Source: Kordiimonas sp. SCSIO 12610
Lineage (GTDB): Bacteria; Pseudomonadota; Alphaproteobacteria; Sphingomonadales; Kordiimonadaceae
Direction: 5' to 3'
DNA length: 64,000 nt
Assembly (NCBI RefSeq): GCF_024398015.1
Contig: NZ_CP073747.1
Location: 3,159,001 to 3,223,000, forward strand
A model generated the notes under the pieces. That model saw only the letters and a program-made list of their open reading frames with translations. It did no database searches and had not been told where the DNA came from. Below, piece by piece: positions 54,239 through 60,860 of this stretch. The position numbers and the translations under genes are program-made. How positions within the stretch are numbered: position 1 is the first letter of the stretch; each line of letters opens with the position of its first letter.

Positions 54239-55015
54239 TTACCCTTTACGCTCGACCATCATTTTCTTGATCTCTGCGATAGCTTTCGCCGGGTTCAAGC
54301 CCTTCGGACATGCGTTCGCACAGTTCATGATTGTATGGCAACGATACAGACGGAATGGGTCCTCAAGGTTATCAAGGCGCTCGCCGGTCGCTTCATCGCG
54401 GCTATCGATCAACCAACGATAGGCTTGCAGAAGAACCGCAGGGCCTAAATATTTGTCACCATTCCACCAGTAACTTGGGCATGATGTCGAACAACATGCA
54501 CAAAGAATACATTCGTAAAGGCCGTCCAGTTTCTGGCGGTCTTCCTTGCTTTGACGGCGCTCTTTCTCCGGCGTCGTACTTTGCGTCTGCATCCAGGGTT
54601 TAATTGATGCATACTGCGCATAAAAGTTTGAAAGATCTGGTACCAAATCCTTCACAACTTCCATATGCGGGAGCGGTGTGATCGCGACATCACCCTTCAC
54701 GTCTTCAATTGCCTTCGTACAGGCGAGCGTGTTGGTGCCATCGATATTCATCGCGCACGACCCGCACACACCTTCACGGCACGAACGACGGAAGGTTACA
54801 GTACTATCCATTTCGTTCTTGATCTTGATAAGGGCATCAAGAACCATTGGACCACAGCTATCCATGTCAACTTCATAGGTATCCATGCGTGGGTTTTCAC
54901 CATCATCGGGGTTCCAGCGATAGATACTGAAGTTTTTGGTGTTTTTCGCGCCTTCAGCTTTTACAGTTTTACCCTTGCCGATTTTTGAATTGGCGGGTAG
55001 CGAAAATTCAGCCAT
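54239..55015 (-). CDS. sdhB: Succinate dehydrogenase iron-sulfur subunit
   Basis: A 258-residue subunit with the [2Fe-2S] cysteines in [15 protein letters not shown], and the [4Fe-4S] and [3Fe-4S] sets in [16 protein letters not shown] and [17 protein letters not shown]. It is last of sdhCDAB and is followed by the terminator. It passes electrons from the FAD subunit to ubiquinone in complex II. Confidence 0.98.
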
Positions 55016-55043: not shown

Positions 55044-56831
55044 TTAGTAAACCCGAGCCTTCGGTTTAATATATTCAACTTCTTCCGTAAGCGTATAGTC
55101 ATGAACTGTACGTTCACCAAGTGTTACTTTCTTACCGTCGAACCATGAAACTGTATGTTTCATCCAGTTTTCATCGTCACGATCCGGGTAATCTTCGTGC
55201 ATGTGTGCACCGCGCGATTCCTTACGGGCATTCGCACCGTGCATCGTGAGAACTGCCTGACCAATAAGGTTATCAAGCTCAAGCGTTTCGATAAGATCAC
55301 TATTCCAAACAAGTGAACGGTCTGTTGTTTTCAGGTCATCCATATTGGCCGCGATTGCATCAATCTTCTCAACACCCTCAGAGAGGATTTCCTCGGTTCT
55401 GAAGACCGCGCAATTATTCTGCATCACTTTCTGCATGGAAAGTCGCGCTTCCGCAGTACTTGTTGAGCCATCTGCGTAACGCGCCTTATCAAGACGGCCA
55501 AGCGCCATCTCTTCATATCCGGCAGGCAGAGGTTTCTGTGTTGCGCCAGCTTTCACGATTTCTGGTACACGCTTACCAACCGCACGGCCAAACACCACAA
55601 GGTCGATCAGCGAATTAGAACCAAGACGGTTAGCACCGTGCACAGATACACATGCCGCTTCACCAACTGCAAACAAACCATTGACCACATTGTCCTGATT
55701 TTCAGGGGTTGGGTTGATCACTTCACCATGATAGTTGGTTGGGATACCGCCCATATTATAGTGAACTGTTGGCAAGATCGGGATCGGCTCTTTGGTCACA
55801 TCCACACCAGCGAAAATTTTCGCTGATTCAGAAATACCCGGTAAGCGCTCCGCGAGGATCGCCGGATCCAGGTGATCCAGATGCAGATACATATGATCTT
55901 TTTCCGGTCCTACACCGCGGCCCTCACGAATCTCATTAGAGATTGAGCGTGATACCACATCACGAGACGCAAGGTCCTTCGCTGATGGCGCATAACGCTC
56001 CATAAAGCGCTCGCCTTCAGAGTTGATAAGGATACCACCTTCACCGCGAGCACCCTCGGTAATGAGAACGCCAGCACCGTAAATACCTGTCGGGTGGAAC
56101 TGTACGAACTCAAGGTCTTGAAGCGACAATCCAGCGCGCAGCACCATACCGCCACCATCACCTGTACAGGTGTGTGCTGATGTTGCAGAGAAATAAGCAC
56201 GGCCATACCCGCCTGTTGCAAGCACGGTTGCCTGCGCACGGAAAGCATGGATTGAACCATCTTCCATATTCATCGCAATCACGCCGCGGCATTCACCGTT
56301 TTCCATGATCAGATCAATCGCGAAATATTCGATGTAAAAGTCACTATCATACTTTAGCGACTGTTGGTAAAGCGCATGGAGCATTGCGTGACCAGTTCTG
56401 TCAGCCGCCGCACACGTACGCTGCGCTGCTGGTCCTTCACCGAATTCTGTCGTCATACCGCCAAATGCACGCTGGTAAATTTTACCTTCTTCAGTACGGG
56501 AGAACGGAACGCCATAATGCTCAAGTTCGTAAACAGCAGCAGGTGCCTCACGAACCATATATTCGATCGCATCCTGATCACCGAGCCAGTCAGACCCTTT
56601 AACAGTGTCATACATATGCCACTGCCAAGTATCTTTGCCCATATTACCGAGCGAAGCAGCGATACCACCCTGCGCCGCCACCGTGTGTGAGCGTGTAGGG
56701 AAAACCTTTGTGATACAAGCGGTCTTAAGGCCAGATTCAGCAAGCCCCATTGTAGCGCGAAGGCCAGAACCACCGGCGCCGATAACAACCGCATCATATG
56801 TGTGATGAGTAATCGGGTAACTTTTTGTCAT
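55044..56831 (-). CDS. sdhA: Succinate dehydrogenase flavoprotein subunit
   Basis: A 595-residue flavoprotein. The FAD motif is [20 protein letters not shown], the histidine that carries covalent FAD is in [10 protein letters not shown], and the active-site region includes [11 protein letters not shown] and [23 protein letters not shown] precedes the ATG. It lies three bases after sdhD. Confidence 0.98.
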
Positions 56832-56834
56832 GTA

Positions 56835-57218
56835 TTATCCCCCGAACGCTATGCGAAGAATTGAAAAGACGCTGAGCGCTGCTATGAGCACACAAGCAAA
56901 TGTAATAAGTATCAGACTGCCAACCTTCAGACCGTGTGAATGAACATAATCCTCAATCACAACCTGAAGCCCTAAACGCATGTGATATGTGATGTTCAGG
57001 ACAAAAAGAATAGTCAACACGGCGACGACAGGCTGCTGCAGCCATGCCACCCACTCAGCATGTCCTTTGCCCGCATTACCAACAAATGAGATAACCATGA
57101 ATAAAACGAGCGGTAAATTGGCAATCGCTGTAACGCGCTGAACCCACCAATGGTGCGTTCCATCCTTTGCAGATCCCAGGCCACGTACCTTCGACAATGG
57201 GGTATTAAAATCAGTCAT
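56835..57218 (-). CDS. sdhD: Succinate dehydrogenase membrane anchor subunit
   Basis: A 127-residue protein with three hydrophobic helices and the typical start of the alphaproteobacterial anchor (SKVRGLGSAKDGTHHWWVQRVTAI). The heme/quinone side shows THHWWVQR and YHMRLGLQVVIEDYVH. The ATG directly follows the sdhC stop (TAGATG), and its ribosome site GGAGG lies inside the end of sdhC. Confidence 0.96.
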   Translation of the reverse strand: MTDFNTPLSKVRGLGSAKDGTHHWWVQRVTAIANLPLVLFMVISFVGNAGKGHAEWVAWLQQPVVAVLTILFVLNITYHMRLGLQVVIEDYVHSHGLKVGSLILITFACVLIAALSVFSILRIAFGG

Positions 57219-57614
57219 CTAAAGCCTCCCCATCACTTTGTAGGCTGCAATCCAAATTGCGAGCGTTGCTACAATCGCAAAGACAAAAGTCAGCTTGGCA
57301 CTGAGAGTATTGGACTTGAGGTCATACATTTTGCCCGCGTCCATAAACAAGTGGCGAATACCACCTGCAAAATGCTGCATGAGAGCATAAGTTATACCAA
57401 ATAATACCAGTCGTCCAAAAGCGCTATCTGCATAGCCTTGAATGGTATTAAAATACTCATAGCCAGTTGCAATCGCCACTAACCACCAAGTCAACAAGAT
57501 AGTACCCACGCTAAGCGCAACACCTGTCATCCTGTTGATGATAGACGCAGCCATATGAGCACCCCAGCGATAGACCTGCAGGTGTGGAGATAGTGGGCGT
57601 TTTACCTGTGCCAT
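57219..57614 (-). CDS. sdhC: Succinate dehydrogenase cytochrome b556 subunit
   Basis: A 131-residue membrane subunit with the signature RPLSPHLQVYRWGAHMAAS followed by SIINRMTGVALSVG, and the heme-ligand helix ALMQHFAGGIRHLFMDAG. The open frame reaches 57641. The ATG at 57614 has AGGAG seven bases upstream and fits the family. It is first gene of sdhCDAB, with a Fur-like palindrome 79-101 bases upstream. Confidence 0.96.
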   Translation of the reverse strand: MAQVKRPLSPHLQVYRWGAHMAASIINRMTGVALSVGTILLTWWLVAIATGYEYFNTIQGYADSAFGRLVLFGITYALMQHFAGGIRHLFMDAGKMYDLKSNTLSAKLTFVFAIVATLAIWIAAYKVMGRL

Positions 57615-57692
57615 TTTGATCTCCTGACAAAAATTCTTCACCGTTTCACCAGTTGATACGGAAAAGTTGTTAACCTCATAAAGACAAATGAT

Positions 57693-57715
57693 TAATTGCG
57701 AACGATTCTCAATTA
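57693..57715. promoter_or_regulatory. Fur-like palindrome upstream of sdhC
   Basis: A 23-base near-perfect dyad. Half-sites TAATTG-C-GAA (57693-57702) and TTC-T-CAATTA (57706-57715) lie around CGA, with one mismatched pair. The ATTCTCA core resembles Fur boxes of alphaproteobacteria. Iron control of sdh, an iron-sulfur and heme enzyme, is known in several bacteria. The exact regulator (Fur, Irr or another) cannot be told from the sequence. Confidence 0.55.
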
Positions 57716-57743
57716 TTCTTTGTGCAAAATACAGTATCTTTTA

Positions 57744-57813
57744 GCCTTTCTTACGAAGAAACCGCAAGATGCGATTATGCCTTTCTTGCGAAAAAATGCC
57801 GCATTTGAGAAAT
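57744..57813. repeat. Two 35-base imperfect tandem repeats in the sdhC-peptidase gap
   Basis: GCCTTTCTTACGAAGAAA (57744) and GCCTTTCTTGCGAAAAAA (57779) begin two copies with a period of 35 bases, each continuing to a CCGCA. The first contains the perfect dyad TTTCTT-ACG-AAGAAA and the second a weaker version. They may be regulatory sites for either divergent gene. Confidence 0.5.
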
Positions 57814-57844
57814 TTCTTGCTCACGGTTTCGTGACAAACTAAAG

Positions 57845-57882
57845 TTTACACAGTGTAAATTACAATTTTCACTGTGTAGAAA
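57845..57882. promoter_or_regulatory. Twin palindromes upstream of the S9 peptidase gene
   Basis: TTTACACAGTGTAAA (57845-57859) is a perfect dyad around a central A. A related but weaker copy, TTTTCACTGTGTAGAAA, begins at 57866. A possible promoter, GTGACA-N17-TGTAAA, overlaps the first copy. Position and repetition suggest binding sites for a dimeric repressor. No regulator gene is adjacent. Confidence 0.5.
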
Positions 57883-57902
57883 GAGCTTATCGGGGGTGAT
57901 TT

Positions 57903-59879
57903 ATGAGTCCGCATCATTTTGTTACAAAGACACTATCAAGTATCATATACCTTACAATTATATCCTGCATATTTACAAACATCTGCATTGCGCAAGACAA
58001 TACGAAAGCGCCGCCGATTTTGCCGGTAGAAGCATTTGCAAGTCTACCAGACCTATCGCAAATGAAATTATCACCTGATGGAAAGATGGTCGGATATGTT
58101 ATTGAATATGAGGGCAGAAAAGCAGTTGTTGCACAAACAGTCGAAGGTGAGAACAAGCAACTCATACCAGCGCCAGATGGCGGTGATTTTGACACTTTCT
58201 ATTGGATTAATGACAAGATAATTTTACTACAACTAAGCGGAACAATATACCGCGAGGAGTTTGGTCGCGAAGTAGCTCAGAGTCGTCTCTTTTCTTTCAA
58301 CCTTAAAAATCGCAAATTTAAATGGCTTGGAAAACCTAAGCGGTCAGTCGCCAGCGCTTCTGCCAATAAAGTCGAGTCGTTTGCATCACAAATCGAAAAC
58401 ATTGTCGACCTACTTCCAAAGGACCCCAAACATATTCTTGTTGCTATGGACTTCGATCTGGATGCAGAAACATCAGTTTATCGAGTTAATGTCGAAAATG
58501 GTAAGCGTAAAGAAATACAAAAAAACTTACGCGGTTACCAAAACTGGTACACAAACCAAAACTCCGAAATTGTTTATGGAACGGGTTACGACGGTTCAAC
58601 GTACAAAGTAAAATTCAAACAGCCAAATGGTAAATGGATCAATCTCAAGAAAACAGAATGGTATAAACGCTTTAAGTTTGAAGATTTTACAAATGACCCA
58701 AACATTATTTACGTAAGTGGCCGCAACGCCTACGGAACCGATAGTATTTTCACACTTGATCTAAGATCAGGTGAACCTGTGGAGGAAATCTTCAAACGTG
58801 CCACAGTTGATATTGGCGGGATGGTTTATCATCCTATAACGGGCAAAGTTGCAGGTGTTTATTATACTGACGATTTTACTCGCGTGAAATACTTTGACAA
58901 AGATCTATCGATTGTTCAGCGAAGTATGCAAAAGGCACTTAAAGGTATGATCGTTTCAATAACGAGCATGTCGAAAGATGAAACAAAATATCTCATATAT
59001 GCCGAGAATGATCGTGATCCGGGTACCTACTATTTATATGACAGAAAAAACAAACAGTTAAACTACATCTCGCCTGCACGCGAGCCAATCTACGCGGAGC
59101 AAATGGCAACTGCAAAGATGCTAAAAATTCCCGTCCGTGATGGCAGCACAATTTCAGCAGTGATAACCATGCCTGCGGGCCGAAAAGCGCAAAATATGCC
59201 AAGTGTAATATTGCCTCATGGAGGCCCACATGTTGCCGGGGATTCCGCGCATTGGGATTTTTGGGCACAATTTTACGCCAACCGAGGCTACATCGTTCTT
59301 CAGCCGAATTTTAGAGGAACGAGTGGGTACGGTACACAATACCTGACCAAAGGAATTCTGCAGTGGGGTGGCCTAATGCAGGATGATGTGACCGACGCCA
59401 CCAAATGGTTAATTACGGAAGGCTATGCTGATCCAGAACGCATTTGCATTGCAGGCGCTTCATATGGTGGATACGCAGCCCTTATGGGAGCTATCAAGGA
59501 ACCTGGACTTTATAAATGCGCCATCTCAGTAAATGGTGTTACTGATTTACCCAGACTTAAATCTACCGACAAAAACCAGTCTGTTGGGGGCAGCGCATGG
59601 ATAAAACGTATGGGTCTCAGAGGGGCAGACGATAAAACTGTTTCGCCCCATGACCGTGCTGATGAAATCAACATACCAGTACTTTTAATGTCATCTGTTG
59701 ATGATACCAGGATCGATTATCGCATGTCGCGCTCTACACACACTAAACTGACTGATTTAGGTAAAGACAGTACATATATCAAGATCAATGACGGAACGCA
59801 CAATATGGTAACCAAAGCGTCACGTATGACTTTACTAAAAGAAACTGAGAAGTTCTTAGCGAAGCATATTGGCGACTAG
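57903..59879 (+). CDS. Exported prolyl oligopeptidase-family (S9) peptidase
   Basis: A 658-residue serine peptidase with an N-terminal signal (LSSIIYLTIISCIFTNICIAQ), a beta-propeller of about 370 residues and an alpha/beta hydrolase domain. The catalytic Ser520 is in GASYGGYAA, the Asp in SSVDDTRIDYR (600 or 601) and His633 in DGTHNM. The oxyanion region is PHGGPHVAGD. This S9C/acylaminoacyl-peptidase-like type degrades oligopeptides outside the cytoplasm. GGGGGTG precedes the ATG. Confidence 0.92.
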   Translation: MSPHHFVTKTLSSIIYLTIISCIFTNICIAQDNTKAPPILPVEAFASLPDLSQMKLSPDGKMVGYVIEYEGRKAVVAQTVEGENKQLIPAPDGGDFDTFYWINDKIILLQLSGTIYREEFGREVAQSRLFSFNLKNRKFKWLGKPKRSVASASANKVESFASQIENIVDLLPKDPKHILVAMDFDLDAETSVYRVNVENGKRKEIQKNLRGYQNWYTNQNSEIVYGTGYDGSTYKVKFKQPNGKWINLKKTEWYKRFKFEDFTNDPNIIYVSGRNAYGTDSIFTLDLRSGEPVEEIFKRATVDIGGMVYHPITGKVAGVYYTDDFTRVKYFDKDLSIVQRSMQKALKGMIVSITSMSKDETKYLIYAENDRDPGTYYLYDRKNKQLNYISPAREPIYAEQMATAKMLKIPVRDGSTISAVITMPAGRKAQNMPSVILPHGGPHVAGDSAHWDFWAQFYANRGYIVLQPNFRGTSGYGTQYLTKGILQWGGLMQDDVTDATKWLITEGYADPERICIAGASYGGYAALMGAIKEPGLYKCAISVNGVTDLPRLKSTDKNQSVGGSAWIKRMGLRGADDKTVSPHDRADEINIPVLLMSSVDDTRIDYRMSRSTHTKLTDLGKDSTYIKINDGTHNMVTKASRMTLLKETEKFLAKHIGD

Positions 59880-60820: not shown

Positions 60821-60860
60821 CACAAAAAGAAAGCGGCGAGAAAAATTTTCTCACCGCTCC
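60821..60860 (-). terminator. Terminator after asd
   Basis: On the minus strand AGCGG-T-GAGAAAA pairs with TTTTCTC-G-CCGCT (60857-60832), followed by TTCTTTTTG. It lies 26 bases after the asd stop. Confidence 0.85.

What the first reader, a model, noticed from the sequence alone, without database searches (positions are those of the whole stretch)
57693..57715. Fur/Irr-like palindrome in front of succinate dehydrogenase
A 23-base dyad with one mismatched pair, ATTCTCA core, lies 79-101 bases before sdhC. That distance, upstream of where a promoter would be, fits activation more than repression. Control of sdh by iron would be sensible because the complex carries three iron-sulfur clusters and heme.
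Basis: partly seen in the sequence, partly recalled or inferred. Interest (0 to 1): 0.5.

Follow-up and report, generated by a model that had tools for sequence, protein, structure and literature searches.

The report
Fur box in the sdhC leader
A marine bacterium carries what looks like a binding site for the iron regulator Fur in front of its succinate dehydrogenase genes, but just after the predicted promoter rather than before it, so Fur more likely restrains than boosts these genes.

Summary
The dyad is real and very probably a Fur box. A model built from nine other sites scores it like those sites (20.8), and the only held congener has a better one at the same place although its divergent neighbour differs. 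The motif also lies before TonB receptors, fdxA and nuoA in this genus, and before TonB receptors, feoA, DUF4198 and hemA genes in two other genera, besides many sites without iron link. The genome encodes two Fur-type proteins; none passes an Irr model. The positional inference is wrong: a promoter element shared by 22 of 28 relatives lies upstream of the box, which falls at about +20 to +40, where repression is expected; the nuoA box is upstream of its promoters. Among 30 family and order regions only this genus has the sdhC box. In Caulobacteraceae one genus has the box 15-16 bp upstream of the -35, which fits published direct activation in Caulobacter, and another has it after the promoter. 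Fur control of sdh is known; the leader position is a variant. Binding and sign are untested.

The parts
57693..57715 (.). Fur-type dyad; 15-base 7-1-7 core at 57697-57711 (TGCGAACGATTCTCA), 21-base model match at 57694-57714
   Evidence: congener site TGCGAATCATTCTCA at the same place
57740..57768 (-). Predicted sigma-70-type promoter of sdhCDAB: -35 CTTGCG (57763-57768), -10 GCTAAA (57740-57745); start near 57733 inferred (7 bases after the -10)
   Evidence: pattern found in 24 of 30 sdhC upstream regions, 22 of 28 without this genus, simple-shuffle rate 2.2%; model from 18 relatives without this genus scores 22.4 here, next best 0.8
57614..57733 (-). Predicted 5' leader of the sdh mRNA, about 120 nt, which contains the Fur box at about +20 to +40
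   Evidence: inferred from the promoter position; no transcript data
57219..57614 (-). sdhC, cytochrome b556 subunit
   Evidence: TIGR02970 119 bits, cut-off 52
56835..57218 (-). sdhD, membrane anchor
   Evidence: TIGR02968 101 bits, cut-off 42
55044..56831 (-). sdhA, flavoprotein
   Evidence: TIGR01816 958 bits, cut-off 727
54239..55015 (-). sdhB, iron-sulfur subunit
   Evidence: PRK05950 391 bits, cut-off 228
57903..59879 (+). Divergent gene that reads as an S9-type peptidase (my reading; not scanned); not the likely target of the box
   Evidence: not next to the conserved box in the congener

Best explanation
The dyad is a Fur-binding site that belongs to the sdhCDAB operon. It was probably gained in this genus of Kordiimonadaceae, which also has a second Fur. 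It sits inside the predicted mRNA leader, about 20-40 bases after the start set by a conserved promoter. Metal-loaded Fur bound there most likely obstructs RNA polymerase at or just after initiation and so lowers sdh transcription; both Fur paralogues have nearly the same recognition helix and either could bind. Shown: motif, its gene context, conservation, position of the promoter element, two Fur-type proteins. Inferred: Fur binding, the transcription start, the sign of the effect, and which paralogue acts. My odds: Fur site of sdh 0.87; box downstream of the promoter in use 0.8; net effect negative 0.55.
For: A model of nine non-sdh sites scores the site 20.8 and its congener 21.5, against 18-27 for its own sites. 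In the congener it is the only perfect match among 46 candidate sites, and the divergent gene of the window is not there. Same motif before a TonB receptor, fdxA and nuoA in both genomes and two further TonB receptors in the congener, and before three TonB genes, DUF4198 and hemA in genus g9 and feoA in g5. Two Fur-type proteins; the four best PDB matches of the first (L001) are Fur proteins. Promoter element upstream of the box. feoA (G005) and the orthologous TonB genes L037 and L086, expected to be Fur-repressed, have a candidate promoter followed by the box, 9 and 16-17 bases after the -10 (25 at sdhC), whereas the nuoA box is upstream of two conserved promoter-like elements. A review holds that box position relative to the RNA polymerase site decides the sign, activated genes having boxes about 90-200 bp upstream of the start (PMC3788343, passages).
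Against: Repression of sdh by iron-loaded Fur runs against the usual logic: sdh falls when iron is short in E. coli (RyhB; PMC3788343 passage) and C. crescentus (PMC3751524 and PMC6120978 passages), and Neisseria NrrF represses sdh under Fur control (PMC5586341, abstract in the listing). The geometry argument rests on few genes: with the same loose promoter pattern the box overlaps a candidate in TonB gene L085, lies upstream of one in hemA (G009), and no candidate was found for G000 fdxA, TonB L211 or DUF4198. The motif model is partly circular, as its sites were found with a pattern drawn from sdh. The site excess over control is modest (52 against 30 in G000; 46 against 41 in G001), 8 of 13 intergenic sites inspected in G000 have no evident iron or respiratory link, and none of the five sites of G003 has a shown iron link. 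No start-site, binding or expression data. One congener only.
Confidence: 0.5

Rival explanations
1. Fur activates sdh here, as the first reader proposed and as published for Caulobacter, through a second promoter downstream of the box or by lifting another repressor.
For: Direct Fur activation of sdh and nuo is reported for C. crescentus (PMC6120978 passages; the operon is also among the Fur-activated genes of PMC3751524); Fur boxes 15-16 bp upstream of the -35 in 11 of 13 usable genomes of one Caulobacteraceae genus; the nuoA box of this genome is in an upstream position.
Against: The only strong match to a relatives-trained promoter model is upstream of the box, 22.4 against 0.8 for the next. 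A sigma-70 consensus scan found no promoter at all in the region, so it neither supports nor excludes a second one.
Confidence: 0.2
2. Fur or the second Fur binds in its metal-free form when iron is short and represses sdh from the leader: iron sparing without a small RNA.
For: A leader position suits a block; iron-sparing logic is satisfied; this genus has a second, faster-evolving Fur.
Against: No test of metal dependence; both paralogues keep the HHDH region and the helix, and the same motif marks ordinary iron-uptake genes. Apo-Fur regulation is known from few species (mentioned in passing in PMC3751524).
Confidence: 0.15
3. The dyad is not a protein site but an RNA hairpin of the leader, or a chance palindrome.
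For: It can fold (-3.3 and -4.2 kcal/mol in the two species, z -1.5 and -3.4); bare dyads of this class are common (7 in the window).
Confidence: 0.05
4. The box controls the divergent peptidase gene and not sdh.
For: Its end lies 188 bases before that gene (57715 to 57903).
Against: In the congener the box and sdhC are kept while the next sizeable ORF on that side is a different gene on the same strand as sdh.
Confidence: 0.02

Closest known systems
Direct Fur activation of the sdh operon in Caulobacter crescentus (da Silva Neto et al. 2009; paper not held; known from passages of PMC6120978 and PMC3751524)
   Same: Fur acts at sdh and at nuo in an alphaproteobacterium
   Different: In the Caulobacteraceae genus examined (g326, unnamed, Caulobacter is my guess) the box is upstream, centred at about -55; here it is in the predicted leader at about +30
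Predicted fur-binding sites upstream of sdh, nuo and acnA in Gluconacetobacter diazotrophicus (PMC9368920, passage)
   Same: Fur sites predicted at sdh and nuo in another alphaproteobacterium
   Different: Prediction only; position relative to the sdh promoter not given in the passages seen
Leader box at sdhC in a second Caulobacteraceae genus (g95, unnamed; found here)
   Same: Box downstream of the promoter, centred at about +41 to +43 in the four of nine where the pattern measured it
   Different: There it abuts the apparent start codon and matches the consensus without mismatch; different order
Ordinary Fur-repressed iron uptake genes (feoA, TonB receptors)
   Same: Same motif; box after the -10 in feoA (G005) and the TonB pair L037/L086
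   Different: Target is an iron-using respiratory enzyme, not iron uptake
RyhB/NrrF/FsrA-type indirect control by Fur
   Same: Links iron supply to iron-using enzymes, succinate dehydrogenase among them for RyhB and NrrF
   Different: Those act through a small RNA; here the Fur box is at sdhC itself. No small RNA was looked for

Membership tests
Fur regulon (Fur box) | Inverted repeat of the 7-1-7 Fur type | tested here: met
   1 mismatch to TGMGAATNATTCKCA; 20.8 in a model built from nine non-sdh sites, themselves found with that pattern
Fur regulon (Fur box) | The same motif marks iron-related genes in the genome | tested here: met
   G000: TonB receptor, sdhC, fdxA, nuoA among 13 intergenic of 49 inspected sites (52 in all); G001: 6 of 6 intergenic among the 15 best of 46; four other genomes: 6 iron-linked plus one ferredoxin reductase-like (below cut-off) among 14, none of them in G003
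Fur regulon (Fur box) | A Fur protein in the genome | tested here: met
   two Fur-type proteins, 136 and 135 bits to PF01475; PDB matches of L001 to Fur proteins at about 1e-59; the NCBIfam Fur model is the best match but below its cut-off, 104 and 107 against 146 bits
Fur regulon (Fur box) | Fur binds the site in a metal-dependent way | not testable with these tools
   needs EMSA, footprint or ChIP
Fur regulon (Fur box) | Conserved at the orthologous position in close relatives | tested here: met
   in the one congener held; absent from 28 more distant upstream regions, best score 6.8
Fur-activated promoter (Caulobacter sdh, Neisseria nuoA type) | Box upstream of the promoter | tested here: not met
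   box begins 25 bases after the -10 of the conserved promoter element; the start itself was not mapped
Irr regulon | An Irr protein in the genome | tested here: not met
   four PF01475 proteins; Irr models at 42-51 bits for two and unmatched for two, cut-offs 150 and 170
RirA regulon | RirA protein and IRO box | not tested
   no search made

The most novel reading that the evidence does not exclude
Fur control of succinate dehydrogenase has arisen more than once in Alphaproteobacteria in two opposite geometries. An upstream box, as in one Caulobacteraceae genus, makes Fur an activator; a leader box, in this genus and in a second Caulobacteraceae genus, makes Fur a brake on sdh. The sign of iron control of a central respiratory complex would thus be set by box position alone, while nuo keeps the upstream box. 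In this genus the gain goes with a second fur, which has a Fur box in its intergenic region and may be devoted to respiratory targets.
Probability: 0.3. Interest if true: 0.55.

Novelty: new variant of a known kind. Interest (0 to 1): 0.36.

Why it matters
In the papers seen here, Fur and iron raise sdh. Two box positions at one operon in different lineages make a clean test of whether location alone sets the sign of Fur action, and sister genera whose sdh promoters lack the box serve as controls.

Tried and rejected
Irr as regulator: rejected, no protein passes an Irr model. Activation from an upstream position: rejected on promoter placement. Box for the divergent gene: rejected by the congener. 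RNA hairpin: considered, weak. A second promoter after the box (weak -35-like and GTTAAC-like letters kept in both species) was considered by eye and not adopted, because the same stretch aligns with a leader element of relatives; it is not excluded. A sigma-70 consensus scan of the region found nothing, I think because this promoter type departs from the E. coli consensus. L219 (G003), which I first read as a TonB gene, has no Pfam match and is counted as a miss. My statements on the literature rest on the listings and on passages; no paper was read whole and the key 2009 paper is not held.

Rows dropped before counts: one search lost 3 of 110 loci (L245, L246, L261, no SdhC start found; many of the 80 named contigs repeat genomes already seen); one search used 71 of the 109 Caulobacteraceae genomes with a match and lost 8 of the 71, 2 of them in genus g326; one search built the tree from 19 of 22 fur loci (L224, L241, L242 missed by my pattern; L224 was read afterwards and resembles L002); one search lost 8 of 30 nuoA loci. 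In one search I inspected 49 of the 52 sites of G000, the 15 best of the 46 of G001. Promoters of five of the nine leader boxes in genus g95 were seen by eye only; the pattern matched in four. Gene calls around sites were a crude longest-ORF method.

Full report
WHERE IT IS. The window is G000:C1:3159001-3223000 of a 3.50 Mb single-contig genome. sdhC, sdhD, sdhA and sdhB lie on the minus strand from 57614 down to 54239 and each passes the cut-off of at least one NCBIfam model. A divergent gene that reads as an S9-type peptidase starts at 57903.

THE OBSERVATION. The dyad is as described. Palindromes of this quality are common: seven in the window. What sets this one apart is its letters: one match to TGMGAATNATTCKCA with at most one mismatch in 64 kb, 0.08 expected. 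In the whole genome that pattern with up to 2 mismatches has 52 sites against 30 for the reversed control, and the sdh site is one of four with 0 or 1 mismatch.

IT IS VERY PROBABLY A FUR BOX. I built a 21-base model from nine sites that exclude sdh (four TonB sites, two fdxA, two nuoA, one Coq4-like) and scored sdh with it: 20.8 here and 21.5 in the congener, within the range of the model's own sites (18-27). In a background pool of 152,779 positions the top three scores equal those of known sites in the pool; then come 18.1 and 16.1. One of 5000 dinucleotide shuffles of the intergenic region reached 20.8. This is partly circular, since the nine sites were found with a pattern drawn from the two sdh sites and recalled Fur boxes; the independent evidence is which genes carry the motif. 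In G000, of 49 sites inspected (52 in all), 13 are intergenic by my crude gene calls; four are iron-linked (TonB receptor, sdhC, fdxA, nuoA), one precedes a Coq4-like gene, eight have no evident link (the NuoA models are matched below cut-off). In G001, of the 15 best of 46 (control 41), six are intergenic and all six are iron-linked: sdhC, three TonB receptors, fdxA, nuoA (Pfam scanned two of the TonB genes, the rest read as orthologues). In four other genomes of the family (14 sites with at most 1 mismatch, control 5), six are before TonB receptors (3), feoA, hemA and DUF4198, a family with Fur-regulated members in Caulobacter (PMC3751524 passage); one is before a ferredoxin reductase-like gene scored below its model's cut-off; seven, among them all five of G003, have no shown iron link. 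I take the motif to be that of Fur.

THE REGULATOR. The genome has four PF01475 proteins. Two are Fur-type; the first is most like 5fd6, 5fd5 and 4ray among solved structures. That these come from alphaproteobacteria, and that the first two are the manganese regulator Mur of Rhizobium, is recalled; sequence alone cannot say whether iron or manganese is sensed. The other two match Zur best, below its cut-off. No Irr. Both genomes of this genus have two proteins above 130 bits; each of the other 20 family genomes in the search has one. G002 has a second at 107.6, and G030, of another family, has three at 141.8, 110.8 and 109.4, so extra Fur copies are not unique to this genus. In the tree the second Fur of G000 groups with the first Fur of this genus (98/98) on a long branch; the order within that group is not to be trusted (19 of 22 loci). 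The second fur is divergent from a ferredoxin reductase-like gene, with a Fur box of 20.7 or 21.7 between them.

THE PROMOTER IS ON THE OTHER SIDE. Alignment of 14 sdhC upstream regions shows one conserved element, CTTGC-N-CTAA, of the Caulobacter type TTGAC-16-G/CCTANA quoted in PMC3751524 (figure legend). The pattern is present in 24 of 30 regions, 22 of 28 without this genus, simple-shuffle rate 2.2%. A model of it from 18 relatives, without this genus, scores 22.4 in both species of this genus; nothing else in the region exceeds 0.8. In the window it is 57740-57768; the start is then near 57733 and the Fur box at about +20 to +40. By contrast the nuoA box (-174 to -154 from the ATG) lies upstream of two conserved promoter-like elements in both species and recurs before nuoA in other genera (G005 18.5, G007 15.1, G003 and G010 10.7, G002 10.4; the other 15 of 22 usable regions, apart from this genus, at most 8.4). 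For iron-uptake genes the picture is mixed: the feoA box of G005 and the TonB boxes of L037 and L086 follow a candidate promoter as at sdhC; the box of TonB gene L085 overlaps one; that of hemA (G009) is upstream of one; none was found for G000 fdxA, TonB L211 or DUF4198.

DISTRIBUTION. The sdhC box is in both genomes of this genus and in none of 28 other upstream regions (27 of the family, one of the order; best score 6.8). In a wider set of 107 usable sdhC regions (80 named contigs, many of them the same family again, and 30 class members, 3 dropped), besides the congener, two strong matches appeared: a Caulobacteraceae genome (L244, 20.6) and, at -335, Pacificispira (L121, 19.6). I then surveyed 63 usable Caulobacteraceae regions of 71 taken (family f70, which holds the genome of L167, titled Caulobacteraceae). 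Genus g326: 11 of 13 have a box with 1 or 2 mismatches, all 15-16 bp upstream of TTGAC-N-GCTTAAA, centred at about -55. Genus g95: 9 of 11 have a box without mismatch after the promoter, next to the apparent start codon; one more has a 2-mismatch site upstream of a TTGACA, one has none. The other genera: 5 of 39 with 2 mismatches at scattered places. Shuffles: 0 of 6300 with at most 1 mismatch, 0.4% with 2. No tool names g326 and g95; Caulobacter and Brevundimonas are my guesses from genome size and kinship.

MECHANISM. Published work reports that Fur binds and activates sdh and nuo directly in C. crescentus (PMC6120978 introduction and discussion passages; tables and text passages of PMC3751524, which also hold that most positive regulation by Fur is indirect). 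The upstream geometry of g326 fits that. A review holds that box location decides between activation and repression (PMC3788343, passages). Applied here, a box at +20 to +40 predicts hindrance of polymerase, so that Fur would lower sdh. This is inference; sdh repressed by iron would be unusual, and activation through an unseen second promoter, anti-repression, or metal-free Fur remain possible.

VERDICT. A very probable Fur site on a known kind of target, with a position that contradicts the proposed sign. It is of moderate interest because the same operon carries Fur-type boxes in two opposite geometries in different lineages, which makes the question of sign testable.

Noticed in passing
sdhC and nuoA leaders of Kordiimonadaceae (among L005-L031 and L179-L200); window 57666-57677: A short element like GGGCCAAYAA lies between the -10 and the ribosome-binding site of sdhC and nuoA in many of the family members shown (GAGGTTAACAAC and CGTGCCAACAAC in this genome). 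Possibly a shared post-transcriptional signal of respiratory operons; seen by eye, not counted.
   Followed up: partly
L002 (G000:C1:2374035-2377394) and L224 (G001): Second Fur gene in both genomes of this genus, divergent from a ferredoxin reductase-like gene with a Fur box between them.
   Followed up: partly
L035 (G000:C1:740730-740744): The only perfect motif match of the genome lies between a Coq4-like gene and a divergent gene that reads like a siroheme synthase; Fur control of a quinone-related gene would be new to me.
   Followed up: no
L319, L323, L324, L330, L333, L334, L335, L342, L248 (Caulobacteraceae genus g95): A Fur-type box without mismatch runs into the apparent sdhC start codon and may double as the ribosome-binding region.
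   Followed up: partly
window 57845-57874: Overlapping inverted repeats (TTTACACAGTGTAAA, CAGTGTAAATTACAATTTTCACTG) just before the divergent peptidase gene; look like an operator of that gene.
   Followed up: no
window 60833-60857: Inverted repeat GCGGCGAGAAAAATTTTCTCACCGC between two minus-strand genes, terminator-like.
   Followed up: no
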